Positions 22,383 to 35,503 of a stretch of 55,128 bases of DNA are shown here, in pieces. This DNA is from Deltaproteobacteria bacterium (GTDB taxonomy: Bacteria > Desulfobacterota > Desulfomonilia > UBA1062), in the NCBI GenBank assembly GCA_018434685.1, contig JAHDOV010000028.1:1-55128 (forward strand), written 5' to 3'. Within the stretch, counting starts at the first letter, position 1. Every line of letters begins with the position of its first letter. Under the pieces are notes generated by a model, which was not told the origin of the DNA, searched no databases, and was given only the letters and a program-made list of their open reading frames with translations. Made by a program: the position numbers and the translations under genes.

Positions 22383-23348
22383 ATGAAGATTGAAGAGATT
22401 ACATTAGATCAGCTTGATGGGGTTGAATTCATTGAAGACAAGAGCCGTGAACTCTCGAGAGAGGTGGGTGACGGGCTTGCCATCAATGCCCTCTCCGGCG
22501 GTGTTGATTCCTCCGTGGTGACCATGCTCGGGCACAAGGCGCTGGGAAACAGGCTTAAGACCTATTTCATCGATAACGGCATCATGCGCAAGGGTGAGCC
22601 CGAACAGATAGCGCAGTGGTTCGGTGCGCTGGGGGTACCTATCGAGATCCATGATGCGAGGGAGCAATTCTTCTCCGCGCTGAAAGGACTGACCGACCCG
22701 GAAGAGAAGCGCGAGGCCATCACCCAGACCTTCTACAAGGATGTCTTTGGTGATCTCGTCAGAAAGAGCGGAGCGAAGTTCCTGCTCCAGGGCACCATAT
22801 TCACCGATGTGGAAGAGACCGTGGCAGGGGTCAAGCGGCAGCACAATATCCTTTCCCAGCTGGGGATCGACACCCAAAAAGAGTTCGGCTACGAGGTGAT
22901 AGAGCCCCTGATCCAGCTTCGGAAGCCGGGGGTGAGGAAGGTCGGGGAGGCGCTCGGCCTGCCCCTGGAGATGTACAACAGGCCGCCGTTCCCGGGACCT
23001 GCCCTTGCCGCACGGGTGATCGGAGAGGTAACACCCGAGAGGGTTTCCCTGGTTAGAGAGGCGACAGCCATCGTTGAAGAAGAGCTTTCCCGTACCGGCG
23101 CCTTCCAGTACCTTGCAATCCTCCACGAAGACAGGGTGACCGGCATCAGGAACGGCAAAAGGGATTACGGCTTCCAGATAGAGATCCGGTGCTGGAACAG
23201 CACGGATGCAAAGACCGCTACGCCTACGCGGCTGGACTTTGATATCCTGGAAAGACTCGCGCTGAGGATGACCGGTGAGATCCCTGGCGTCGTCAGTGTG
23301 ACCTACAACATAACATCGAAGCCGACATCAACGATAGAGGCCATATAA
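22383..23348 (+). CDS. Stand-alone GMP-synthetase-like ATP pyrophosphatase (GuaAb/ExsB-like)
   Basis: A 321-residue protein that matches only the ATP-pyrophosphatase and C-terminal dimerisation parts of GMP synthase. The PP-loop SGGVDSS lies at residues 38-44, and a FPGPALAARVIGEVTPE segment corresponds to the PFPGPGL block of GuaA. The C-terminus, SKPTSTIEAI, resembles the KPPGTIEWE end of GuaA. There is no class I amidotransferase domain and none next door. Archaeal GMP synthetases split the enzyme in this way. Differences at usually fixed positions (TIFTDVEET for TIYPDVIES, KRQHN for KSHHN) suggest an ammonia-dependent enzyme or a new adenylating function. The ATG follows AAAGGAGTTGTT. Confidence 0.78.
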   Translation: MKIEEITLDQLDGVEFIEDKSRELSREVGDGLAINALSGGVDSSVVTMLGHKALGNRLKTYFIDNGIMRKGEPEQIAQWFGALGVPIEIHDAREQFFSALKGLTDPEEKREAITQTFYKDVFGDLVRKSGAKFLLQGTIFTDVEETVAGVKRQHNILSQLGIDTQKEFGYEVIEPLIQLRKPGVRKVGEALGLPLEMYNRPPFPGPALAARVIGEVTPERVSLVREATAIVEEELSRTGAFQYLAILHEDRVTGIRNGKRDYGFQIEIRCWNSTDAKTATPTRLDFDILERLALRMTGEIPGVVSVTYNITSKPTSTIEAI

Positions 23349-23410: not shown

Positions 23411-24490
23411 ATGATCACGGAAATGGAAAGGATTTACAGCACCCTTTTGAACAGGGATTACCCCCAGAGGCTTTTTGGCAACCTCGAGGGGTTCGAAAAG
23501 AAGGGCAGCGGCTACCTGGCTCGCTGCCCGTTCCATACTGACGAGCTCGCCACGCTGGTGATCTACGGCGACAGGCCCGAGTACTTCTGTTTCGCCTGCA
23601 GTGCCCGCGGCGACTGGCTGCGGTATCTGCAGCAGAAAGAGGGGATCGGTTTTCATGACGCCGTGGCAAATCTGAGCCTAGCCTCAGGGATTCCGGTTCA
23701 AGACAATGACGAGAACAGATGGAACGACGATCTGAACAGGACCATCATCCTGGAACAGGCCATGGGATTCTTCAATGCCCAGCTCTTTTCCCCTGCCGGG
23801 GAAGAGGTGCTGCACTACCTCTACCGCAGGGGATACACCATGAGCGAGGTAGAGGGCAGCTCGCTCGGATACTACCCCGGGTTTGCAGCGCTTCAGGAGT
23901 ATCTTTCCACCCAGGGTGTCGCGCAGCAACTGCTCGACGAGGTGCTCGGCGCCATCTGGAGCAGGGATGCTGAGGATTGCCGGCTCGTTATCCCCTACCG
24001 GGATTCCTGCGGCAGACTCATGGGGCTTTTCGGAAGGAACAGTTCCCTCACGGGAGAAGCGGCCTACAGGCCGCTTACCGATCTCTCAGCGCTGAGGGAT
24101 GTCCCCTTTCTCATGTACAAGGCAAGGATGAAGGATGAACTGATGATCGTGGAGGGCCTTCTGGACACGCTCCTCATCGACCAGATAGGGACCAGGCCGG
24201 TAATCGGGATCGGCAAGTCAGGCCTGAGTCCTGAGCAGCTCAACACCATTGCCTCGTACGGCACGAAGCACTGCATCCTCTGCCTGGGGGGTTCCGAGCG
24301 TCAGCAGAGATACACCCGGGATGCCGCAGGTCTCATAAGGGACCAGGGACTCGGAGTGTCTGTCCTGCCGCTCAAGGCCAAATATTCTGACATAGATGAA
24401 TTTATCCGCTCCCACGACGTCAATGAATTCAGAAAACTCGTGAAAAAGCCCGTTAGCCTTGAGCAGTGGTCAAGGCGGAGACATTCCTGA
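23411..24490 (+). CDS. DnaG-like protein with CHC2 zinc finger and degraded TOPRIM acidic motif
   Basis: A 359-residue DnaG relative. The N-terminal CHC2-type zinc finger is intact (Cys39, His42, Cys60, Cys63). The middle segment RLVIPYRDSCGRLMGLFGR (191-209) mirrors the basic core motif of primases. The TOPRIM Glu is present (Glu248 in MIVEGLLD), but the acidic DxD that binds metal in DnaG (YDGD) is replaced by LGGSE (292-296). There is no helicase-binding C-terminal domain; true DnaG has about 580-600 residues. A primase activity is therefore doubtful. It begins 62 bp after the GMP-synthetase-like gene, with GAGGAAACG before the ATG, and may share its transcript. The real dnaG is presumably elsewhere. 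Confidence 0.8.
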   Translation: MITEMERIYSTLLNRDYPQRLFGNLEGFEKKGSGYLARCPFHTDELATLVIYGDRPEYFCFACSARGDWLRYLQQKEGIGFHDAVANLSLASGIPVQDNDENRWNDDLNRTIILEQAMGFFNAQLFSPAGEEVLHYLYRRGYTMSEVEGSSLGYYPGFAALQEYLSTQGVAQQLLDEVLGAIWSRDAEDCRLVIPYRDSCGRLMGLFGRNSSLTGEAAYRPLTDLSALRDVPFLMYKARMKDELMIVEGLLDTLLIDQIGTRPVIGIGKSGLSPEQLNTIASYGTKHCILCLGGSERQQRYTRDAAGLIRDQGLGVSVLPLKAKYSDIDEFIRSHDVNEFRKLVKKPVSLEQWSRRRHS

Positions 24491-24606: not shown

Positions 24607-25734
24607 ATGGGGGGCAGGTACTGTGCTGAGGCACTGGTGATAGGAGCCGGTCCGGCCGGGCTCGGAGTGGCGCTCGGTCTTGCCCGCTCGGGCATCGATG
24701 TGGTGGTCCTGGAGGGGCAGGCCGGGGTCGGCTCAAGGCGCCGGGGCGAGACCATCCGCTTTGATAAGGACATGGAGAGCCTGCTCGGCCAGGGGTTCTT
24801 TGAACAGCAGGTCGTCAAGAGAATCAGCAAGAGGACCTATTTTTCGCATACCGGAAACTGCCTCGTGAACAGGGCCATCAGCAACCCCAACATTATCATC
24901 AACTGGGAGCACTTCCTTAATGCCATGGCCCATGAGGCGGAGTGTGCCGGTGCACGCATCTGGACGGGGGCAACGGTGGTGGACCTCCTGGAGGAGGGGG
25001 GGGGCATCTGCGGTGTCCGGGCAATGATCGGGGGGTCTGCAGGGGAGGAACTGCGCGCAAAGGCTGTCTTTTCCTGCGGAGGCTGTGACGACCCTGCGTC
25101 CCGCCACCTCCGGTGGGATCGTTCGAAGATTGATCTGCCTGTGGTCAAACAGCTGGTCAGCGGATACACAGGACCTGCGGACCGGCTCGAGTATCACTTT
25201 CACGTATCCGGTGGTGGTCTGACCATCGGCACTATCTTCCCGCGCGCCCGGGGAGAGGCCGAGATAATTCTCCTCGATGCCATGCCAACTGCGGGTTCGC
25301 AGCTCACGTTCGAGGAATTCGCCGCGCAGCATCCCCTGTTCGGAGAGCGTCTTGCCGGCACCGACCCATTCTATACGCTCGAGACAAGAATTCCCATGGG
25401 GGGCATGCTCTCGAGGGTATCTCCCCGAGCAGGACTCGTTATGGCCGGTGATGCGCTCGGGCATGTCCAGGCACGTGGCGGGAGCGGGATAAAGACCTCC
25501 TTTCTCATCGGGTTCGGAGCCGGTGAACTGGGGGCGCGTGCGATCAGATCCGGACCGTGGACGCAGGAGGTCAGCGACCGGTTCGAAAGACACATGGCCT
25601 CTCTGCCGCACCTGCGCTCGCTCTGGAGGCATAATTTCATATATTCGAAGCTGCGCAGACAGATCTTCGGCAGGTTGCACACGCCCGGTGATATGGACCG
25701 GTACTGGCCGTGCCTGAAGACGGTGCTCAGATGA
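24607..25734 (+). CDS. FAD-dependent oxidoreductase (geranylgeranyl-reductase-like)
   Basis: A 375-residue flavoprotein. The N-terminal Rossmann motif is VIGAGPAGLGVALGLARSG (residues 11-29), followed by the E of VVVLEGQ that binds the FAD ribose. A second FAD motif, GLVMAGDALGHVQARGGSGI, lies near residue 280. The layout matches the geranylgeranyl reductase/p-hydroxybenzoate hydroxylase superfamily (NAD(P)/FAD-dependent oxidoreductases). The start follows GGAGGTGAGGC. The substrate is unknown; reduction of a polyprenyl chain or an aromatic compound are the usual roles. The gene is 116 bp after the DnaG-like gene and on the same strand, a loose association only. Confidence 0.75.
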   Translation: MGGRYCAEALVIGAGPAGLGVALGLARSGIDVVVLEGQAGVGSRRRGETIRFDKDMESLLGQGFFEQQVVKRISKRTYFSHTGNCLVNRAISNPNIIINWEHFLNAMAHEAECAGARIWTGATVVDLLEEGGGICGVRAMIGGSAGEELRAKAVFSCGGCDDPASRHLRWDRSKIDLPVVKQLVSGYTGPADRLEYHFHVSGGGLTIGTIFPRARGEAEIILLDAMPTAGSQLTFEEFAAQHPLFGERLAGTDPFYTLETRIPMGGMLSRVSPRAGLVMAGDALGHVQARGGSGIKTSFLIGFGAGELGARAIRSGPWTQEVSDRFERHMASLPHLRSLWRHNFIYSKLRRQIFGRLHTPGDMDRYWPCLKTVLR

Positions 25735-25906: not shown

Positions 25907-27775
25907 ATGATCAGCGCAGAGAATCTCACCAAGAGCTATGCAGGGCAGTCGCTCTTCGAGAAGGTCAGTTTCAAGATCAATGACCGGGAACGGGTCGGCC
26001 TTGTCGGCAGAAACGGGCATGGGAAGACCACCCTTCTCAGGATCATCACCGGCGAGGAGACCCCTGATGAGGGGAACCTGCTCATACCCCGGAATTATCG
26101 GGTCGGTTATGTGCGGCAGCACCTGGATTTCACTGGGAATACCGTGCTGGAAGAGGGCATGAAGGGGCTTCCCGAAACGCAGAAAGACCACCACTGGAAG
26201 GTGGAAAAGGTGCTTGCAGGCCTGGGCTTTTCCCCGGATGACATGCAGCGTCACCCCGGAGAGTTCTCCGGCGGTTACCAGGTGCGGCTCAATCTTGCCA
26301 AGGTCCTCGTGTCAGATCCGGACCTGCTCCTTTTAGACGAACCAACCAACTATCTCGATATCACCTCGATCCGCTGGATCGAACGGTTCCTTGTGGAGTG
26401 GCCCCATGAGCTCATCCTCATAACCCATGACCGGAGCTTCATGGATAAGATCGTCACCCATACCATGGGGATTCACCGGAAGAAGATCAAGAAGATCGCC
26501 GGCAATACGGAGAAATTCTACGACCAGATTGTCCAGGAAGAAGAGATCTATGAGAAGACCAGGATCAATGATGAACGCAAGAGAAAGGAAGTTGAGCAGT
26601 TCATCACCCAGTTCAGGGCAAAGGCCAGGCTGGTAGGGCTCGTGCAGTCACGGATCAGGACGCTCGAGAAGATGGAGCGCAAAGACAAACTCGATAAGAT
26701 CAAGACCCTGGACTTCTCCTTCAGCTCTGCACCGTTCATCGGCAAGTACGTCGTGACTACGAGGGATCTGAGCTTTTCCTATGATCCGGAGGTCGAACTG
26801 ATCCGGGATCTGAATATCACGGTCAGGCCCGGAGAACGGGTGTGTATCATCGGACCCAATGGGAAAGGCAAGACTACCCTCCTGCGTCTCCTTTCAGGAA
26901 ATCTGCGGCCGCAAGACGGCGAGGTGATCTGGAATCCGAAAACCATCAGGGGCGTTTTCGAGCAGACCAACATCAAGACCCTGGTGGACTCGAGAACCGT
27001 CGAGGAGGAGATCATCTATACCCATGGCGAGGTGGACCACCAGAAGGCGCGGAATATCTGCGGCTCGATGATGTTCGAGGGGGACAGTGCACTCAAGCGG
27101 ATCGATGTGCTCTCCGGAGGTGAGAAGAGCAGGGTGATGCTGGCCAAGATCCTTGTAACCCCGGTGAACGTGCTGCTCCTGGACGAGCCCACGAACCATC
27201 TCGATATGGAGTCGAGCGATGCACTGCTCGCAGCGATCGACAGCTTCGAAGGGGCGGTCGTGATGGTGACGCACAACGAGATGTTCCTGCACGCCCTGGC
27301 CGAACGGCTCATCATCTTCTACCATGACACCATCGAGGTGTTCGAGGGGAGTTATCAGCGATTCCTGGAAAAAGGCGGATGGGGCGATGAAGAAGATCTC
27401 ATGGCGTACCAGAAAAAGGCAAAGGACCCGGGAGATGCGAACGGCAAGCTCGATAAGAAGGCCCTGCGCAAGATGCGGGCGGATATCATAACCCGGCGTT
27501 CGAAGGTCCTTGGCCCGATCGAGAAGGGTATTGCCCGGGCCGAGACCGGGATCGAGGCCCACGAGGAGAAGCTGAAAGGGCTTCATGCAGCCATGCAGGA
27601 GGCCTCAGAGAAGCAGGACGGACAGCAGATCGTGAAGATCTCCCAGGCTATTCATGAAAGTGAGGAGGCTATCGAGACCTTCTTTCTGGAGCTGGAGGAC
27701 CTGACAAGGTCGTTTGAGGAGCACAGCGCTGTATTCGACCGGGAGCTCGAGGAGATCGACCAGGGTAACAATTAA
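25907..27775 (+). CDS. ABC-F family ATPase (ribosome-associated type)
   Basis: A soluble ABC-F protein of 622 residues with two ATP-binding cassettes and no membrane segments. Cassette 1 has Walker A GRNGHGKTT, signature FSGGYQVRLNLAK and Walker B LLLLDEPTNYLD. Cassette 2 has GPNGKGKTT, LSGGEKSRVMLAK and VLLLDEPTNHLD. The linker between them (about 215-280) is charged and helical, as in the ribosome P-site-tRNA interaction motif. A long C-terminal coiled-coil region (about 510-620) resembles Uup/YheS more than EttA. The likely role is resolving stalled translation or DNA-junction-related functions; the subtype cannot be set by eye. No antibiotic resistance role is implied by the context. Confidence 0.88.
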   Translation: MISAENLTKSYAGQSLFEKVSFKINDRERVGLVGRNGHGKTTLLRIITGEETPDEGNLLIPRNYRVGYVRQHLDFTGNTVLEEGMKGLPETQKDHHWKVEKVLAGLGFSPDDMQRHPGEFSGGYQVRLNLAKVLVSDPDLLLLDEPTNYLDITSIRWIERFLVEWPHELILITHDRSFMDKIVTHTMGIHRKKIKKIAGNTEKFYDQIVQEEEIYEKTRINDERKRKEVEQFITQFRAKARLVGLVQSRIRTLEKMERKDKLDKIKTLDFSFSSAPFIGKYVVTTRDLSFSYDPEVELIRDLNITVRPGERVCIIGPNGKGKTTLLRLLSGNLRPQDGEVIWNPKTIRGVFEQTNIKTLVDSRTVEEEIIYTHGEVDHQKARNICGSMMFEGDSALKRIDVLSGGEKSRVMLAKILVTPVNVLLLDEPTNHLDMESSDALLAAIDSFEGAVVMVTHNEMFLHALAERLIIFYHDTIEVFEGSYQRFLEKGGWGDEEDLMAYQKKAKDPGDANGKLDKKALRKMRADIITRRSKVLGPIEKGIARAETGIEAHEEKLKGLHAAMQEASEKQDGQQIVKISQAIHESEEAIETFFLELEDLTRSFEEHSAVFDRELEEIDQGNN

Positions 27776-27876: not shown

Positions 27877-29760
27877 TCAGGACCCTGCCTGCTTCTTATC
27901 CTCATCAAACGGGATAGTCAGTTCATAGGCGCCCTGGGAGAGGGTTGCCTGAATGGGGTGTCTCCCCTTCTCGAACACCTTCATCATGGGTTTGTTCGAG
28001 GCGAGCACATCTGCGGTAAAACCGTGAAGGCCGCGTTCCTTTGCCAGGCGGATGAGCATGTCGTAGAGGAACGTCGCGATGCCGACGCCCTGGTATTTTT
28101 CATCCACCACGAAGGCCACGTCGGCATACGGCCGCCTGCTGTCCTTGACGAACCTCGCCTCTGCGATGATCTGTTCCTGCTCGGAAGGTCCCACGAGCGC
28201 CACGATGGACAGGATCTTGTTGCAGTCCACGGTCACGTATTGCTGCATCTTGGCATGGGGCATGACCTTGATGGGGCTGAAATAGCGGTAGTAGACCGTC
28301 TTGTCCGAGAAGCGGTAGAACAGGCGGCGCATCTCTTCCTCGTCGGACGGCCGTATTGCCCTGAAGCGCACCTCGGTCCCCCCCTTGAAGGTGTGCTTTG
28401 TGGCGATCTCTGCAGGATACAGGTGCGCGCATTCGGGCAGATAGATCTGATCCTGGTAGAGGATCTTTTCGGCCTTTGCCTCTTCGAACAGGGACTGTCT
28501 GTCGTCCGGGTGGGCGATGTCGATCAGTGCCTGGGCCCGCTCGCGGACGGTTCTTCCCCTCATGTTCGCAACCCCGTATTCGGTAATGACCATGTCGACG
28601 GATTCTCTCAGGCTGAACAGGTTCGGGAATTTTTCCACGGACAGCCAGATATTGGCTTCGCCCCTGCGGTTTCTGCTGGGCAGGGCGAATATCGCACAGC
28701 CGCCTTCGGAGAGTTCTGCTCCATTGATGAAGTCAACCGCCTCTCCCGGGCTCGCCGTGACATTTCCCTTGCCCGTATGCAGGGCGATCCTGCCGGAGAG
28801 GTCCACCTTGCGGGCGGGGATCACGGTGACAAAGCACGGATTACGTCCGATCTGCACCGGGTTGAAGACCGTATCGATGCCCTGAAACTCCACCATGGGG
28901 TTGCGGTCGAGCCAGGTCATGAGTTCCCGGGAGCCGAAGGCATAGGACGTAAGCGCCTTTCCCCGGTATACCCCCTTGTTGCGGTTGGTCACGGCACCGC
29001 TCTTCATGAGGTCCATGAGGGCATCGGTGAAGAACGGCGTGTGGATGCCGAGCCCCCGCTTGTGGACCAGGTGCCTGCTCAGGGCCTCGTAGATGGGGCC
29101 GATGGAGAAGCAGATGCAGCTCCCGTCTTCGATGACCGAGGCGACGTTTGCAGCCACCTGGTCGAATACCTCATCCACGGGCCAGCGCTCGAAGTATATG
29201 GGCGGATCATCGGAATACACGAGCATATCGAAGTCGGAAACCGGGACAAAGGTATCACCGAAGGTGCGGGGAATCCGGGTATTGATCTCACCGATGACGA
29301 ACTTTGCCTGTTCCATGGCCTGCCTGGCAACGTCCACGGCAACGCCGAGACAGCAGTAACCCGCCTCGTTCGGCGGGGTGATCTGCACAAAGGCGGCATC
29401 GATGGGAAGCTGTTTCGATTCGATGAGTCCGGGGATCCTGGCAAAACGGCTCGGTATCAGGTCTACATGTCCCTGGGTGATGGCCTCGCTCGCCACCCAT
29501 CCGGAGAAAAAGGTCTTGAGCCTGAACTTCTGGGTCTGGAGCTCTTTCATGGTGATGACATCCCCGAGGCTCACGAGCTGGATCAGCTCGAGATCCTGGA
29601 GGTTGGTGGCAGCCGATGACATGAGACACTTGACCAGGGATCTTGGCTCGGCCACCCCGGTGCCGAGAAATATCTTCATCCCCGGCCTGATGCATTTAAG
29701 GGCCTCTTCGCACGATACCACCCGCTCCTGCCACTGGTCATTACCGAAAGACTCTGTCAT
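27877..29760 (-). CDS. Acetyl-CoA hydrolase/transferase-family CoA-transferase fused to a GNAT domain
   Basis: A 627-residue fusion. Residues ~10-440 form a class I CoA-transferase of the acetate/4-hydroxybutyrate CoA-transferase type: ITPPNEAGYCCLGV near 127, EDGSCICFSIGPIYEAL near 211, and NPMVEFQ with Glu291 at the place usually taken as the catalytic glutamate. Residues ~465-615 form a GNAT acetyltransferase with the acetyl-CoA motif YQGVGIATFLYDML. Such fusions are known in Geobacter relatives; the GNAT part may acetylate or regulate a CoA-linked enzyme. The ATG follows AGGTGCCAG. It is convergent with the ABC-F gene and lies beside the LarA-like gene on the same strand. A role in moving CoA between acetate and another acid is likely; the second acid is unknown. 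Confidence 0.87.
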   Translation of the reverse strand: MTESFGNDQWQERVVSCEEALKCIRPGMKIFLGTGVAEPRSLVKCLMSSAATNLQDLELIQLVSLGDVITMKELQTQKFRLKTFFSGWVASEAITQGHVDLIPSRFARIPGLIESKQLPIDAAFVQITPPNEAGYCCLGVAVDVARQAMEQAKFVIGEINTRIPRTFGDTFVPVSDFDMLVYSDDPPIYFERWPVDEVFDQVAANVASVIEDGSCICFSIGPIYEALSRHLVHKRGLGIHTPFFTDALMDLMKSGAVTNRNKGVYRGKALTSYAFGSRELMTWLDRNPMVEFQGIDTVFNPVQIGRNPCFVTVIPARKVDLSGRIALHTGKGNVTASPGEAVDFINGAELSEGGCAIFALPSRNRRGEANIWLSVEKFPNLFSLRESVDMVITEYGVANMRGRTVRERAQALIDIAHPDDRQSLFEEAKAEKILYQDQIYLPECAHLYPAEIATKHTFKGGTEVRFRAIRPSDEEEMRRLFYRFSDKTVYYRYFSPIKVMPHAKMQQYVTVDCNKILSIVALVGPSEQEQIIAEARFVKDSRRPYADVAFVVDEKYQGVGIATFLYDMLIRLAKERGLHGFTADVLASNKPMMKVFEKGRHPIQATLSQGAYELTIPFDEDKKQAGS

Positions 29761-29885: not shown

Positions 29886-31130
29886 TCACCCCGGCATCTT
29901 CAGGTACTGCATGGTGCCGTCCTGGATGACCGCGACCTTTGCCCCTTGAGGGTAGTCCTGTTCCAGGATGCCGAGCACCTCTTCCCAGGTCTTTACCACG
30001 GTTGCATCATCGGCGTGACAGACGAGGTCGAGACCGGTCCGGTCTGGGTGAGGGTTCATGACGATGAGCCTCTTCATGAGCAGCTGCACGAATCCGGGCG
30101 ACCTGGGGGTGAAGTGACGTCCGCCGTACCCGCTTCCCCAGGAACGCATGACATAGTGCGGCACCTGGCCTTCCGGGGCATCCGAGATGAGGACCGCGGT
30201 TCCCTGCCCACCCGGCTTCATGGTCATGAGTGCGAGCAGCAGTGCGATAGCCGATTCGTTTGCCTTGCCGTAGGCATTGCAGACCACGATGTCGTACCCG
30301 CCGGCAAAGGGGATGCCGTAGTGCTCGGAGCCTTCTGCAGCCCCTGCTTCATGGGTTGCCCTGAAGGGACCCGCGAAGAGGTTCGCTATCTCGCCACGCC
30401 TGTTGATGAGGCAGTCCACCTTGAAGTTCAGGCCGGCCAGATCACCGGCAGCGTCACACTCGGCACGCATGATGTTGCCCTGGAAATTCCCGAGGCCGGT
30501 ACGGCTCTGGTCGCGGAAGAGCTGATTGTGGAACTGGTTGATGGTCTCGATCCCGGAAATCCCGGGCATGATGATCTTGGCACCGCCGCCGAAACCCACG
30601 TGTACGTGAGCCGTTATGCACCCGATGCCGATTCTCAGGTCACACGCCATGAATTCGCGGTTCACCCAGAGCTCGACACCGGTTGGGGTCCTCCCGAGGC
30701 GCACCGTGTTCTGGAAGGGGTCGTGATTGTACACCGCGTAATTTTCCACGATTTCATCGCCGAGTTTTTTCCGGGCATTGATCATGTCATAGGCACCGTG
30801 AGAACCGAGCGCCCAGATGAACCTGATCTGGTCTTTCTTCATGCCGGAGCGGTGCAGGCTTTCCAGGACAAAAGGCGCAACATCCTTCACCGGCGTCGGC
30901 CTGGTCATGTCGTCAAAGACGATCACGGCCTGGTTCCTGCCCCTGGCGAGTTCCTCGAGCGTCGGGCCTTCAAGGGGGATTTCCACCCTGCGCCGGATCT
31001 CCTCAGGGCTGAGGGCCGGTTTGTCGAACCCGGGTGAGGTGAGATTGTCCACCTCCCACCTTCCGGGGAAGGTCAGTTCGCGCCCCTTGTTTTCATACCA
31101 GAGTCTCGACGGCACCGATATCTTCTTCAT
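29886..31130 (-). CDS. LarA-type nickel-pincer racemase/epimerase
   Basis: A 414-residue LarA (DUF2088) family enzyme, cytosolic, expected to racemise or epimerise a 2-hydroxyacid using a nickel-pincer nucleotide cofactor. Residues equal in spacing to the cofactor and catalytic residues of Lactobacillus LarA (His108, His174, Lys184, His200) are present: His111 in GSHGAY, His175 in ITAHVHVGFGGGAK, Lys185 and His201. The DDMTRPTP block is also typical. The ATG at 31130 is preceded by GGAGGGGGTTCTT; an upstream in-frame Met has no such site. The cofactor genes larB, larC and larE are not in the window. It is divergent from the 2-hydroxyacyl-CoA dehydratase operon, which suggests a 2-hydroxyacid substrate. 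Confidence 0.85.
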   Translation of the reverse strand: MKKISVPSRLWYENKGRELTFPGRWEVDNLTSPGFDKPALSPEEIRRRVEIPLEGPTLEELARGRNQAVIVFDDMTRPTPVKDVAPFVLESLHRSGMKKDQIRFIWALGSHGAYDMINARKKLGDEIVENYAVYNHDPFQNTVRLGRTPTGVELWVNREFMACDLRIGIGCITAHVHVGFGGGAKIIMPGISGIETINQFHNQLFRDQSRTGLGNFQGNIMRAECDAAGDLAGLNFKVDCLINRRGEIANLFAGPFRATHEAGAAEGSEHYGIPFAGGYDIVVCNAYGKANESAIALLLALMTMKPGGQGTAVLISDAPEGQVPHYVMRSWGSGYGGRHFTPRSPGFVQLLMKRLIVMNPHPDRTGLDLVCHADDATVVKTWEEVLGILEQDYPQGAKVAVIQDGTMQYLKMPG

Positions 31131-31255
31131 AAGAACCCCCTCCAAACAGCTCAAGCCACACATTCAGGCCATGTGTACACCGTAAATAGTACAAAGAACC
31201 GGTTACCATAAGCAAGGACAATATCTTGTATGATAATATTATGAGCTGTTTTCAA

Positions 31256-31285
31256 TTGAAAGAGGTGTCCGGGTACTGTTATAAT
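31256..31285 (+). promoter_or_regulatory. Sigma70-type promoter of the dehydratase operon
   Basis: TTGAAA (31256-31261) and a perfect TATAAT (31280-31285) are separated by 18 bp. Transcription would start near 31292, leaving a 5' UTR of about 155 nt. Confidence 0.65.
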
Positions 31286-31294
31286 CCCCTCGTA

Positions 31295-31320
31295 CAGGGA
31301 GAGATTGTGATCTCTCCCTG
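31295..31320 (+). promoter_or_regulatory. Perfect 11-bp palindrome at the predicted transcript start
   Basis: CAGGGAGAGAT (31295-31305) and its exact complement (31310-31320) flank a TGTG spacer. No T run follows, so it is not a standard terminator. It could be a repressor operator just after the start site or a 5' mRNA-stabilising hairpin. Confidence 0.6.
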
Positions 31321-31378
31321 CAGCTCCACCTGATATAACTGATAAAATATATGATTATTATGTAACAGGAGGGTGTCT

Positions 31379-31459
31379 GTGGCTGCCAAGAACGTTGGTG
31401 TATCTGCAGTTGAACCGCACTACATGTCGATGAACCGGGAGAATATATGGAGAGCTTGA
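31379..31459 (+). CDS. Possible 26-residue leader peptide coupled to the dehydratase gene
   Basis: A GTG start at 31379 follows a strong ribosome site, AGGAGGGTG. The 26-codon frame (starts MAAKNVGVSAVEPHY) ends in TGA at 31459, so it overlaps the dehydratase start at 31447 in another frame by 13 bp. The overlap would allow ribosomes to re-initiate on the dehydratase gene. No homology is recognised, and the product itself may be unimportant. Confidence 0.35.
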   Translation: MAAKNVGVSAVEPHYMSMNRENIWRA

Positions 31460-32562
31460 GAGAATTTCATGAAGTAGCACAGAATCCATACAGGTATGCA
31501 GCAGAACTGAAAGATCGTGGCAGGAAGATCCTCGGGTATTTCTGCTCGTATACCCCCGAGGAGATCATCTATGCTGCCGGTCTTCATCCCATGCGCCTTT
31601 TCGGATCAAAGGAGCACATACACCTTGCAGACAAGCACCTGCAGTCGTACAGTTGCTCGCTCGTCCGCTCTGCCATGGCCGATGTGATGGCCGGCAGCCT
31701 GGCGTTCCTCGATGGGACCGTGTTCCCGCACACGTGCGACTCCATCCAGCGCCTCTCAGATATCTGGCGGCTCAACACGAACCTCGGCTTCTTTGCCGAT
31801 GTGGTGCTGCCGGTCAAGCTCAACACCGAGAGCGCTCGGGAATACATGATAGCGGTGCTCGCCAGGTTCAAGGGAGAGCTCGAAGAGCATTTCAGCCTGA
31901 AGATCACGGACGGGAACCTGCGGAGCGCAATCGTACGCTACAATGAAATCCGCGGCTGCCTCACCTCGATATACGAACTGCACGCGAAAGATCCGTCAGT
32001 GATATCGGGCAGCGATCTCTACGCAGTCGTGAGGGCCTCCATGATCATGGACCGTGACGACCTCGCCGTGAAGCTGGCAGCTGTCCTGCATGAACTGAAG
32101 CAGAAACAGGGCACTGGGCGCAACTCCGGCAAACGCCTCATGCTCGTGGGCAACATCTGCGATCACCCGGATATCTACACCCTCATCGAGAGATCAGGGG
32201 CTGCGGTTGTCTGGGACGATCTGTGCAGCGGCACCAGGTATTTCGAAGGGAAGATAGACCCGGACACCGAGCCCATGACTGCACTGGCGAACCGGTATTT
32301 CACCAGGCCGGTCTGTCCGGCAAAGCACGTCTCGCCCTTTGCACGGGGAGAACACCTCCTCGGGCAGGTCAGGGAGCACCGGGTGGACGGCGTGATCTTC
32401 TTCCAGCTCAAGTTCTGCGATCCCCACAGTTTCGATTACCCCTATCTCAAGGAGTTTCTCGACAGGGCAGGCATTCCGAACATGATGCTGGAGGCCGAGG
32501 ACCAGCTTCCCCCGGAAGGGCAGCTCCTCACGAGGTTCGAGACATTTGTGGCGATGTTGTAG
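31447..32562 (+). CDS. 2-Hydroxyacyl-CoA dehydratase subunit (HgdB/BcrC-like)
   Basis: A 371-residue subunit of the family of 2-hydroxyacyl-CoA dehydratases and class I benzoyl-CoA reductases, oxygen-sensitive cytosolic Fe-S enzymes. Candidate [4Fe-4S] ligands lie in family positions: Cys33 (GYFCSYTPEE), Cys70 or Cys97 (SYSCSLVR, HTCDSIQRL) and Cys324 (LKFCDPHSFDYPYL). The late segment GIPNMMLEAED is also characteristic. GGGAG precedes the ATG. The second subunit starts 27 bp after this gene. Because the operon has only one activator ATPase, a dehydratase is more likely than a four-subunit benzoyl-CoA reductase. The actual hydroxyacyl-CoA cannot be read from sequence. Confidence 0.85.
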   Translation: MESLREFHEVAQNPYRYAAELKDRGRKILGYFCSYTPEEIIYAAGLHPMRLFGSKEHIHLADKHLQSYSCSLVRSAMADVMAGSLAFLDGTVFPHTCDSIQRLSDIWRLNTNLGFFADVVLPVKLNTESAREYMIAVLARFKGELEEHFSLKITDGNLRSAIVRYNEIRGCLTSIYELHAKDPSVISGSDLYAVVRASMIMDRDDLAVKLAAVLHELKQKQGTGRNSGKRLMLVGNICDHPDIYTLIERSGAAVVWDDLCSGTRYFEGKIDPDTEPMTALANRYFTRPVCPAKHVSPFARGEHLLGQVREHRVDGVIFFQLKFCDPHSFDYPYLKEFLDRAGIPNMMLEAEDQLPPEGQLLTRFETFVAML

Positions 32563-32589
32563 ACACTGGGAAAAATTGAGGAGTGGGTG

Positions 32590-33831
32590 ATGGCTCAGAT
32601 AGACGAAGAGAAGAAAAAGAGAAAATTCAAGTCGGCCGGTAAGATGCGGGACATCATGTTCGAATACTACGTCGAGGCCAAGTCTGCCGGTGACAATGGA
32701 AAGAAGGTCGCCTGGATCACGAGCGGCGGCCCTGTCGAGCCGCTCATCGTCATGGATGTGATCCCGGTGTACCCGGAGAATTACGGTGCCATGATCGGTG
32801 CATCCCATATGGGCGGGGACCTGTGCGAAAAGGCAGAGGCAATGGGGTACAGCAGCGACCTCTGCTCCTATGCCAGGGCGGACATTGCATGCGCACCGGT
32901 TAACGGGGGGCCCATTGGCGGGCTGCCCAGGCCGGATATGCTCGTCTGCTGCAACAACATCTGCGGGACCGTGCTCAAGTGGTATGAGGTGCAGGCACGC
33001 TATTTCAACGTTCCGCTGTTTATCTTCGATACCCCGTTCTGCCACACCGGGTTCTCGGATGAGGCCCGCACATACGTACGCAGGCAACTCAATGAGTACA
33101 TAGCGTTTCTCGAAGGGGCCTGCGGCAGGAAATTCGACTTCGACAGGAGCATAGAGGTGGGCAGGCTCTCCCTCCAGGGGCAGAGGCTGTGGCAGGAGGT
33201 GCTCGATGCCGCGGCGCACAAGCCGTCTCCCATCACTGCGTTCGATGCCTTCTTCTTCCTGGCACTGATCGTGACGCTTCGGGGAACACAGACTGTGGTC
33301 GATTTCTACGCGGAACTCCTCCATGAGATGAAGGAAAAGGTCGCAGCCGGCATCAGTGCCGTCCCCAGGGAACGCTACCGGCTCCTGTGGGACAATCTGC
33401 CGGTATGGTACCGGTTGAAGTGGCTTTCCGACAAGTTTGCATCTCACGATGCCTGCCTGGTTGCAGACACCTATACCACTGCCTGGTGCGGTTCCATGAA
33501 GTATATCGATGAAAACGATTTTCTCTCTTCCATGGCCGAGGCCTATACGAGGATCTATCTCAACATCGGCGTCGATGAGATGGCCAAGACCGTCTTCGAG
33601 ATGATCGACAAGTACGATGTCGACGGCCTGGTCATGCATTCCAACCGGAGCTGCAAGCCATACTCCCTGGGCCAGTACGACATTCAGCGTATGGTGCAGG
33701 AGCGCAAGGGGATCCCGTGCATGATGATCGAGTCGCACATGGTCGATGAACGGAGCTTCTCCGAGAGCCAGATCTCAACCCGCATTGATGCCTTCATGGA
33801 GATCATCAAACAGCACAAGGGCCATGTATGA
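32590..33831 (+). CDS. 2-Hydroxyacyl-CoA dehydratase subunit (HgdA/BcrB-like)
   Basis: The second, 413-residue subunit of the dehydratase. Family blocks include AWITSGGPVEPLIVMDV (41-57), YPENYGAMIG, LCSYARADIAC (Cys92, Cys101), VCCNNICGTVLKWYE (Cys120, 121, 125) and SNRSCKPYSLGQYD near residue 350. These are the usual positions for the Fe-S cluster ligands and the CoA-ester site. The ATG at 32590 follows GAGGAGTGGGTG; the GTG just before it is less likely. With the previous gene it would form the heterodimeric component that removes water from a (R)-2-hydroxyacyl-CoA by a ketyl-radical route after one-electron reduction by the activator. Confidence 0.85.
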   Translation: MAQIDEEKKKRKFKSAGKMRDIMFEYYVEAKSAGDNGKKVAWITSGGPVEPLIVMDVIPVYPENYGAMIGASHMGGDLCEKAEAMGYSSDLCSYARADIACAPVNGGPIGGLPRPDMLVCCNNICGTVLKWYEVQARYFNVPLFIFDTPFCHTGFSDEARTYVRRQLNEYIAFLEGACGRKFDFDRSIEVGRLSLQGQRLWQEVLDAAAHKPSPITAFDAFFFLALIVTLRGTQTVVDFYAELLHEMKEKVAAGISAVPRERYRLLWDNLPVWYRLKWLSDKFASHDACLVADTYTTAWCGSMKYIDENDFLSSMAEAYTRIYLNIGVDEMAKTVFEMIDKYDVDGLVMHSNRSCKPYSLGQYDIQRMVQERKGIPCMMIESHMVDERSFSESQISTRIDAFMEIIKQHKGHV

Positions 33832-33864
33832 GATCGAAACCATGATGAAAAGGAGAACCATGCA

Positions 33865-34626
33865 ATGAGTACCCTGAAATATGGCCTTGAGGGCAAGGTC
33901 GTCGTGGTCACCGGAGGGAGCAGGGGGATCGGGCTGGAGATCGCCCGGGAGCTCCTGGTACAGGAGGCAAAGGTCGTCATCTGCGGGAGGAAACCCGAGG
34001 CGCTCGCCGAGGCCGCTCAGCAGCTCGGGGGAACGGGCCTCATGACCATGCAGGCGCACATCGCAAAAGAACAGGACGTGGAAAATCTCTTTGCAGCGGT
34101 CATGGATGCCTGCGGGAGGGTCGATGTGCTCATCAACAATGTCGGCATGAACCTGATAACCCCGTTCGTCGCAGACACCGAGTTTTCCCTGTGGCAGAAG
34201 ATCATGGACACCAACCTGAGCGGCACCTTTCTCTGTTCCCGGCGTGCCTCCCGGATCATGAGGGAGCAGAAGGGCGGCAAGATCGTGAATGTCTCGTCCA
34301 TTGCCGGAAGGAAGGCATCTCCCGGCATGGGTATCTACGGCATAGCCAAGGCCGGCATCGAGATGCTCACCAAGGTCCTGGCTTCGGAACTGGCGCAGTT
34401 CAACATCCAGGTCAATGCCGTGGCCCCATCCATGGTGCGCACGGAGTTCAGCAAGCCGTTCTGGTCGAACAGCGATATCTATGAGCAGATTGTCAGGACA
34501 ATTCCGCTCGGAAGGATTGCAGAGCCCCTGGACGTGGTCCACCCGGTGCTGTTCCTTGCCTCGGATGCAGCAAACTTCATTACGGGTCAGACCATTGTGG
34601 TTGACGGCGGCGCGACAGCGATATGA
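33865..34626 (+). CDS. Short-chain dehydrogenase/reductase
   Basis: A classical SDR of 253 residues using NAD(P)H. The cofactor motif TGGSRGIG lies at residues 17-24, NNVG corresponds to the NNAG element, Ser is in IVNVSSIAG, and the catalytic YGIAK is present. The C-terminus, FITGQTIVVDGGATAI, is typical of FabG-like enzymes. It starts 33 bp after the dehydratase subunit gene and precedes the activator gene, so it is probably co-transcribed. In this setting it may oxidise or reduce a hydroxy/keto intermediate of the same pathway, for example a 3-hydroxyacyl-CoA or a 2-keto acid. The substrate is unknown. Confidence 0.83.
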   Translation: MSTLKYGLEGKVVVVTGGSRGIGLEIARELLVQEAKVVICGRKPEALAEAAQQLGGTGLMTMQAHIAKEQDVENLFAAVMDACGRVDVLINNVGMNLITPFVADTEFSLWQKIMDTNLSGTFLCSRRASRIMREQKGGKIVNVSSIAGRKASPGMGIYGIAKAGIEMLTKVLASELAQFNIQVNAVAPSMVRTEFSKPFWSNSDIYEQIVRTIPLGRIAEPLDVVHPVLFLASDAANFITGQTIVVDGGATAI

Positions 34627-34633
34627 TGTGTGT

Positions 34634-34661
34634 GGCTCTGGGCACTAGGCGCTGGGTGCGT
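34634..34661 (+). repeat. Degenerate heptad repeat after the SDR gene
   Basis: Four 7-bp units, such as GGCACTA followed by GGCGCTG, begin 7 bp after the SDR stop. It is the same kind of array as those at 3151, 27778 and 35508. Confidence 0.6.
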
Positions 34662-34670
34662 GGAAAAACC

Positions 34671-34726
34671 GGGTATAAGGTCTGAGGTATAAGGTAACTG
34701 GTGAACAGTGAGCAGTGAATGGTAAG
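34671..34726 (+). repeat. Eight-unit degenerate heptad array before the activator gene
   Basis: Eight successive 7-bp units with pattern NGGTNNN or CAGTGAN fill the space between the SDR and the activator ATPase. Examples are AGGTATA and CAGTGAA. The last units provide the purine-rich stretch just before the activator start, so the array may supply its ribosome-binding site. Confidence 0.6.
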
Positions 34727-34732
34727 GGGAAT

Positions 34733-35503
34733 ATGAGGACAGCGGGGATCGACATCGGGTCTATAACGACCAAGGCTGCCATTGTTGAAGACGGGCGAAT
34801 ACTCGGCACGATGGTTTGTTTTTCGGGCTATAACGCGAGCCTTGCAGGCACCACTGTGTACCGGAACCTGCTCGATGATCTGGGGTTCGATGCCTCCTCC
34901 ATCGACAGGATCATTTCCACCGGCTATGGAAGAAACAACGTTGATTTTGCAGACAAATCCATGACCGAGATCATCTGTCACGGCGCAGGTGCGCACTTCC
35001 TCAACCCGGACATACGCACGGTCATCGATATCGGCGGACAGGACAGCAAGGCACTCGTCGTCGATGCTGACGGCAGGGTCAGGGATTTTGTCATGAACGA
35101 CAAGTGTGCCGCAGGAACAGGAAGGTTTCTCGAGGTCATGGCCCGTGCACTGGAGGTGGACCTCGATGATTTCGGAAGCCTCTCGCTCAGGTCAGCCACC
35201 CCCGCGAAGATAAGCAGTATCTGCACGGTGTTTGCCGAGTCGGAGGTCATCTCGCTCATATCCAAGGGGGAGGACCGGGAGAATATCATAGCGGGTATTC
35301 ACGATTCGGTGGCCTCACGGGTCTTTGCCATGGCCCAGCGGGTAGGGATCCCTGTCCCGGTCATGATGACCGGCGGGGTTGCCAAGAATATCGGCGTGGT
35401 AAAGGCACTGGAAAAGAAGATAGGGGCAACCCTCGAGGTAAACGAGTTTGCCCAGGTTAACGGCGCCATCGGGGCAGCCGTGCTGGCGGCAAAGATGGGG
35501 TGA
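34733..35503 (+). CDS. 2-Hydroxyacyl-CoA dehydratase activator ATPase (HgdC/BadF family)
   Basis: A 256-residue ASKHA-fold ATPase. As a homodimer it holds one [4Fe-4S] cluster and drives a single electron into the dehydratase with ATP hydrolysis. The phosphate motif is GIDIGSITTKAAIV (residues 5-18). The two cluster cysteines are Cys125 (NDKCAAGTGRFLE) and Cys164 (SSICTVFAESEVISL), almost the same positions as Cys127 and Cys166 of Acidaminococcus HgdC. DIGGQDSKAL and MTGGVAKNIGV complete the family pattern. The ATG at 34733 follows AAGGGG, with a GTG 18 bp upstream as an alternative. It is the last gene of the dehydratase operon. Confidence 0.92.
   Translation: MRTAGIDIGSITTKAAIVEDGRILGTMVCFSGYNASLAGTTVYRNLLDDLGFDASSIDRIISTGYGRNNVDFADKSMTEIICHGAGAHFLNPDIRTVIDIGGQDSKALVVDADGRVRDFVMNDKCAAGTGRFLEVMARALEVDLDDFGSLSLRSATPAKISSICTVFAESEVISLISKGEDRENIIAGIHDSVASRVFAMAQRVGIPVPVMMTGGVAKNIGVVKALEKKIGATLEVNEFAQVNGAIGAAVLAAKMG

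What the first reader, a model, noticed from the sequence alone, without database searches (positions are those of the whole stretch)
23411..24490. DnaG paralogue with intact zinc finger but degraded catalytic acids
The CHC2 zinc finger and the RNA-polymerase basic motif are kept and the TOPRIM Glu remains, but the DxD metal site has become LGGSE, and the helicase-binding domain is absent. Loss of only the catalytic acids points to a DNA-binding, regulatory or newly specialised role rather than random decay.
Basis: seen in the sequence. Interest (0 to 1): 0.58.

Follow-up and report, generated by a model that had tools for sequence, protein, structure and literature searches.

The report
Dead DnaG-primase-like protein in uncultured bacteria
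One family of uncultured anaerobic bacteria keeps, beside its normal DNA-replication primase, a shortened second copy whose zinc finger and fold are preserved but whose catalytic machinery has been replaced, which suggests that an essential enzyme was recycled into a non-enzymatic protein of still unknown job.

Summary
The gene at 23411-24490 encodes a 359-aa DnaG core (CHC2 zinc ribbon, DNAG_N, TOPRIM) without helicase-binding domain; the genome has a separate normal DnaG. The TOPRIM DxD is absent in 17 of 17 orthologues with that region and present in 39 of 39 sampled DnaGs. The TOPRIM Glu is kept in 16 of 17, zinc ligands and the later DxD in 14 of 14 aligned. Close pairs show dN/dS 0.14-0.19 and the predicted fold is intact (pLDDT 90.9), so it is not decaying. 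It was found only in this family (17 of 24 genomes; 0 of 18 in the sister family). Best reading: a family-restricted pseudo-primase, probably acting through its zinc ribbon as a binding or regulatory protein; its target is unknown. Loss of primase activity is a strong inference, a DNA-binding role only a guess. No earlier description was found in the searched library.

The parts
23411..24490 (+). dnaG-like pseudo-primase gene, 359 aa
23492..23707 (+). CHC2 zinc ribbon, residues 28-99 (C39, H42, C60, C63 invariant in 14 of 14)
   Evidence: 1d0q match Z 11.8 over 97 residues
23768..24130 (+). DNAG_N / RNA-polymerase subdomain, residues 120-240; IPYRDxxGRLMG kept, PKYLN and FxK lysines lost
24149..24157 (+). 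V247-E248-G249, TOPRIM glutamate (Glu in 16 of 17 orthologues; Gln in G010)
24284..24298 (+). L292-G293-G294-S295-E296, site of the lost DxD
24389..24397 (+). D327-x-D329, second acidic pair, kept in 14 of 14
22383..23348 (+). upstream neighbour: GMP-synthase ATP-pyrophosphatase paralogue without glutaminase domain (adjacent in 7 of 17 carriers; not obligate)
24607..25734 (+). downstream neighbour: geranylgeranyl-reductase-like FAD protein
25907..27775 (+). downstream neighbour: ABC-F ATPase

Best explanation
A lineage-restricted pseudo-primase: a DnaG core (zinc ribbon + RNA-polymerase subdomain + TOPRIM) without the helicase-binding domain, the DxD metal site and the initiating-nucleotide lysines, kept for a non-catalytic job. 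Shown: homology, predicted fold, conserved loss, purifying selection, family-wide retention, presence of a separate normal DnaG. Inferred: no primer synthesis; the N-terminal helix and zinc ribbon are the working surface (now the best conserved part) and bind a partner (RNA, ssDNA or a protein), while the dead polymerase/TOPRIM part is a scaffold held together by the kept acidic pair and R140. The partner and the process are not identified. I hold the loss of primase activity at about 0.85 and the zinc-ribbon-led binding role at about 0.5.
For: DxD absent in 17 of 17 orthologues with the region, present in 39 of 39 DnaGs. Lysines equivalent to E. coli K229 and K241 lost in 14 of 14; these residues and D309 are reported to influence initiating-substrate incorporation (PMC7367122, passages). 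dN/dS 0.14-0.19 in 6 close pairs. Model pLDDT 90.9, pTM 0.89; 4edg Z 24.8, 248 residues, 2.1 A. Constraint moved: in 13 genomes that give both proteins, TOPRIM is the best conserved part of DnaG (68.8% mean pairwise identity) but only 47.1% in the paralogue, where the zinc ribbon is highest (53.9%). 11 of 27 paralogue-specific conserved positions lie in residues 1-99 (an even spread over the length would give about 7, so this is a mild excess). D327, D329 and R140 are kept in 14 of 14; in S. aureus DnaG the acid D345 is turned away from the active site by R146 (PMC6755086, passages), so the kept acids can be structural.
Against: No biochemical data. E248 and D327/D329 are kept, so a metal could still bind. 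E. coli D309A alone appears still to have made primers in one assay (PMC7367122, passages), so one missing acid is not always fatal. No conserved neighbour points to replication: FadB, thiolase, acyltransferase, GMP-synthase-like, FAD protein, ABC-F. The gene can be missing: G004 and G006 have its flanking genes directly adjacent without a remnant, so it is dispensable there. The zinc ribbon is itself less conserved than that of DnaG (53.9 against 64.6%).
Confidence: 0.6

Rival explanations
1. Trans-acting modulator of the genuine DnaG: it lends its zinc ribbon to DnaG, or pairs with it, and tunes priming. DnaG zinc ribbons can act on a neighbouring subunit (Corn et al. 2005, recalled; only its title was seen, in the reference list of PMC6163395).
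For: Full zinc ribbon and core fold kept; normal DnaG co-resident; helicase docking lost, so it would not compete for DnaB by that route.
Against: No replication gene linkage; 35 of 73 conserved DnaG columns changed; interaction not tested.
Confidence: 0.15
2. Nucleotide or alarmone sensor: the TOPRIM pocket still binds a nucleotide through E248 and D327/D329 and signals without catalysis.
For: E248 in 16 of 17, D327/D329 in 14 of 14, Y219 (E. coli Y230) shared; ppGpp binds at the DnaG active site (PMC7367122, passages); GMP-synthase-like neighbour in 7 of 17 carriers.
Against: K229 and K241 equivalents and the DxD lost; the GMP-synthase-like gene was not found in G008, G010, G014 and G016, which have the dnaG-like gene.
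Confidence: 0.12
3. RNA-binding protein of RNA metabolism or translation, as archaeal DnaG in the exosome, linked to the ABC-F gene downstream.
For: ABC-F lies next downstream, directly or after the FAD gene, on one contig in 12 of 17 carriers; the archaeal DnaG TOPRIM helps to bind RNA (PMC4227792, passages).
Against: Linkage not seen in G008, G009, G010; net charge -3 to -15; archaeal DnaG has a different N-terminal domain.
Confidence: 0.15
4. A still active polymerase with an altered metal site.
For: E248, D327, D329 and the GRLMG stretch are kept.
Against: The DxD, K229, K241 and the YDRFR Arg are gone together.
Confidence: 0.07
5. Decaying duplicate or mobile-element remnant.
For: Long branch; not found in 7 of 24 family genomes; primase genes are common on phages and plasmids.
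Against: dN/dS 0.14-0.19; intact frames; branching that largely follows the family's DnaGs; phage and plasmid rows listed are ordinary primases of about 23-27% identity.
Confidence: 0.04

Closest known systems
Bacterial DnaG primase (TIGR01391)
   Same: CHC2 zinc ribbon, DNAG_N and TOPRIM in the same order; best structural matches are DnaG
   Different: no DxD, no K229/K241, no helicase-binding domain; 136.4 bits against a cut-off of 283.6
Animal TWINKLE N-terminal domain
   Same: primase module kept after loss of primase activity; structural match 7t8b Z 15.8, 213 residues, 3.4 A
   Different: mirror image: TWINKLE lacks three of four zinc-ribbon cysteines and keeps motifs II-VI (PMC7231222, passages); here the zinc ribbon is kept and the TOPRIM DxD is lost; no helicase
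Archaeal DnaG (exosome subunit)
   Same: DnaG-named TOPRIM protein with a non-replicative job (PMC4227792, passages)
   Different: archaeal protein has an RNA-binding N-terminal domain instead of a CHC2 ribbon, and is reported to have primase activity that falls when conserved TOPRIM residues are mutated
Mycoplasma MG010 family (TIGR00646)
   Same: DnaG-related protein that is not DnaG; weak match 20.5 bits
   Different: far below its cut-off of 260.65

Membership tests
DnaG DNA primase | CHC2 zinc ribbon | tested here: met
   PF01807 55.4 bits against cut-off 24.9; ligands 14 of 14
DnaG DNA primase | RNA-polymerase subdomain and TOPRIM fold | tested here: met
   PF08275 26.0 (cut-off 26), PF13155 22.4 (cut-off 22.1), both marginal; model Z 24.9 with 5guj, 247 residues, 2.5 A
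DnaG DNA primase | TOPRIM DxD metal site | tested here: not met
   0 of 17 orthologues; 39 of 39 DnaGs have it
DnaG DNA primase | basic residues K229/K241 for the initiating nucleotide | tested here: not met
   A/S/P and L/V/M in 14 of 14
DnaG DNA primase | C-terminal helicase-binding domain | tested here: not met
   protein ends at 359; own DnaG 579 aa
DnaG DNA primase | TIGR01391 curated score | tested here: not met
   136.4 against 283.6
DnaG DNA primase | primer synthesis | not testable with these tools
   needs purified protein
TWINKLE-like inactive primase-helicase | fused helicase and degenerate zinc ribbon | tested here: not met
   no helicase domain in 359 aa; zinc ligands intact
Reverse-transcriptase-associated DnaG-like (DRT, PADLOC) | partner reverse transcriptase | tested here: inconclusive
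   RT_UG29 71.5 bits and RTasDnaG-like 28.5 bits match; no RT domain in the 18 window proteins scanned with Pfam, but not all window ORFs were scanned

The most novel reading that the evidence does not exclude
The first recognised family of bacterial pseudo-primases: a chromosomal DnaG core emptied of catalysis and kept as a zinc-ribbon regulator, either of the cell's own primase in trans or of an RNA process.
Probability: 0.3. Interest if true: 0.65.

Novelty: new variant of a known kind. Interest (0 to 1): 0.45.

Why it matters
DnaG is essential and its active site is nearly invariant. A conserved family that drops the active site and keeps the zinc ribbon and fold separates the binding part of the primase from its chemistry, and is the reverse of what happened in animal TWINKLE. 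It also warns that such genes may be annotated as DNA primase although they most likely make no primers.

Tried and rejected
Mobile-element origin: tblastn against phages (241 records matched) and plasmids (201 records matched) gave, in the rows listed, only ordinary primases at about 23-27% identity; IMG/VR gave two weak matches limited to about the zinc ribbon. PHROGs and PADLOC hits are generic primase or DRT models.

Recent duplication of the family's own DnaG: the paralogues form one group (100/100) apart from all 39 DnaGs on a long branch; holding them together with the family's DnaGs is not clearly rejected (p-AU 0.058); the wider test with the sister family did not finish. Origin left open.

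Operon with the GMP-synthase-like gene: rejected as obligate, since 4 of 17 carriers gave no such gene (G008, G010, G014, G016), and G003, G004, G006, G021, G022 have it without a detected dnaG-like gene. G021 and other drafts may lack the dnaG-like gene only through gaps: the G021 contig ends inside the ABC-F gene. G001 also gave no GMP-synthase-like gene, but its contig begins inside the dnaG-like gene and the genome is 79% complete, so it is not counted among the four.

Promoter and terminator scan: about as many sites as in shuffles.

Full report
Observation. The ORF 23411-24490 (+) is a 359-residue protein with the CHC2 zinc ribbon, DNAG_N and Toprim_2. It scores 136.4 bits against the dnaG model, below its cut-off of 283.6. 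The same genome (4.29 Mb, 58 contigs) has one other match, a normal 579-aa DnaG with FDGD. So the window gene is a second, shortened, DnaG-like gene.

Orthologues and distribution. In the family, 17 of 24 genomes carry it: 14 full-length rows in alignment A1 (the 13 others 38-61% identical to the window protein), G018 as a whole 340-aa frame, G020 split over two contigs and G001 cut by a contig end. Of the 16 family genomes at least 90% complete and at most 5% contaminated, 13 carry it and G006, G007, G021 do not (read from the rows; the call's own tally also counts DnaG). In a phylum sample of 395 genomes, 10 have it, all of this family; the five other matches are 598-630 aa frames of 121-133 bits, i.e. 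DnaG. That scan depends on two peptide patterns, so distant members could be missed.

Catalytic residues. Aligned with 39 DnaGs of the phylum: zinc ligands 14 of 14 and 39 of 39; E248 13 of 14 (Q in G010) and 39 of 39; first Asp of DxD 1 of 14 (G010 keeps a lone D; the others G12, S1) against 39 of 39; second Asp 0 of 14 (G9, S3, A1, one gap) against 39 of 39; D327 14 of 14 and 39 of 39; D329 14 of 14 and 38 of 39; R140 14 of 14 and 39 of 39. The partial or separate orthologues G001, G018, G020 read LALGTSE, LALGNG, LALGNG and keep VEG. So 0 of 17 has a DxD.

What else changed. Of 73 columns conserved in at least 90% of the DnaGs, 35 are lost in the paralogues: among them the K of PKYLN (A11, S2, P1), the K of FxK (L11, V2, M1), the Arg of YDRFR, an Arg after the DxD, and the LGT loop. 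The two lysines correspond to E. coli K229 and K241, by the KY pair and the 12-residue spacing in the alignment with 1dd9; K229, Y230, K241 and D309 are described as influencing initiating-substrate incorporation (PMC7367122, passages). Y219, equivalent to Y230, is kept. Net charge is -3 to -15 (mean -9) in 14 paralogues and -2 to +27 (mean +4.5) in 39 DnaG cores, without overlap. The stretch IPYRDxxGRLMG is kept.

Not decay. dN/dS is 0.140-0.191 in the six pairs with dS under 0.5, all among four genomes of one genus. The AlphaFold2 model from A1 has pLDDT 90.9, pTM 0.89. Best structural matches are DnaG: 5guj Z 24.9 (247 residues, 2.5 A), 4edg Z 24.8 (248 residues, 2.1 A), and for the zinc ribbon 1d0q Z 11.8 (97 residues, 2.9 A). 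The order of branching inside the paralogue group largely follows that of the family's DnaGs, by eye. In 13 genomes giving both proteins (78 pairs), DnaG is best conserved in TOPRIM (68.8%) and the paralogue in the zinc ribbon (53.9%, TOPRIM 47.1%): constraint has moved from the catalytic domain to the zinc ribbon.

Surroundings. Window order: FadB, thiolase, YihG-type acyltransferase, GMP-synthase-like ATP-pyrophosphatase without glutaminase domain, dnaG-like, geranylgeranyl-reductase-like FAD protein, ABC-F. The GMP-synthase-like gene is adjacent in 7 of 17 carriers (G000, G002, G009, G011, G018, G020, G023), the FAD gene in 11 of 17, and the ABC-F gene lies next downstream (directly or after the FAD gene) on the same contig in 12 of 17; G002 and G016 are cut by contig ends and G008, G009, G010 do not show it. 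In G004 and G006 the GMP-synthase-like and FAD genes are adjacent with 42 and 103 bases between the matches and no remnant (best E 0.79 in those two): a clean empty site. No neighbour examined is a replication gene.

Interpretation. That the protein makes no primers is a strong inference (metal acids, two nucleotide lysines and further basic residues gone together, conserved over the family). The kept D327/D329 and R140 fit a structural role: in S. aureus DnaG the acid D345 is held by R146 of the neighbouring subdomain (PMC6755086, passages); that the window residues are the exact equivalents is my reading of the alignment. The most likely function is non-catalytic binding through the zinc ribbon; whether to RNA, ssDNA, DnaG or another protein is not known.

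Known relatives. TWINKLE lacks three of four zinc-ribbon cysteines and keeps motifs II-VI (PMC7231222, passages), the mirror image of this case. Archaeal DnaG serves the exosome (PMC4227792, passages). Literature searches for DnaG paralogues, inactive primases or TOPRIM pseudoenzymes (listings seen) showed no description of this family; the library holds only open-licence papers, so this is not proof of absence.

Noticed in passing
22383-23348: GMP-synthase-like ATP-pyrophosphatase without glutaminase domain, 39% identical to the genome's full GuaA (C22:64403) and 64-85% identical to its counterparts in the family; the PP-loop SGGVDSS is intact and the end reads KPTSTIEA. Possibly a different substrate.
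   Followed up: partly
27877-29760 (-): Acetyl-CoA hydrolase/transferase fused to a GNAT acetyltransferase domain.
   Followed up: no
29889-35503: Lar_N protein, two 2-hydroxyglutaryl-CoA dehydratase-type subunits, a short-chain dehydrogenase and a BadF-type ATPase in a row: looks like a 2-hydroxyacyl-CoA dehydratase system.
   Followed up: no
23411-24490: PADLOC models RT_UG29 and RTasDnaG-like match the protein: some reverse-transcriptase defence systems carry DnaG-like parts; whether those keep the DxD was not checked.
   Followed up: no
G017:C1:121397-123253 (L105): The ABC-F match of one relative has one in-frame TAA.
   Followed up: no
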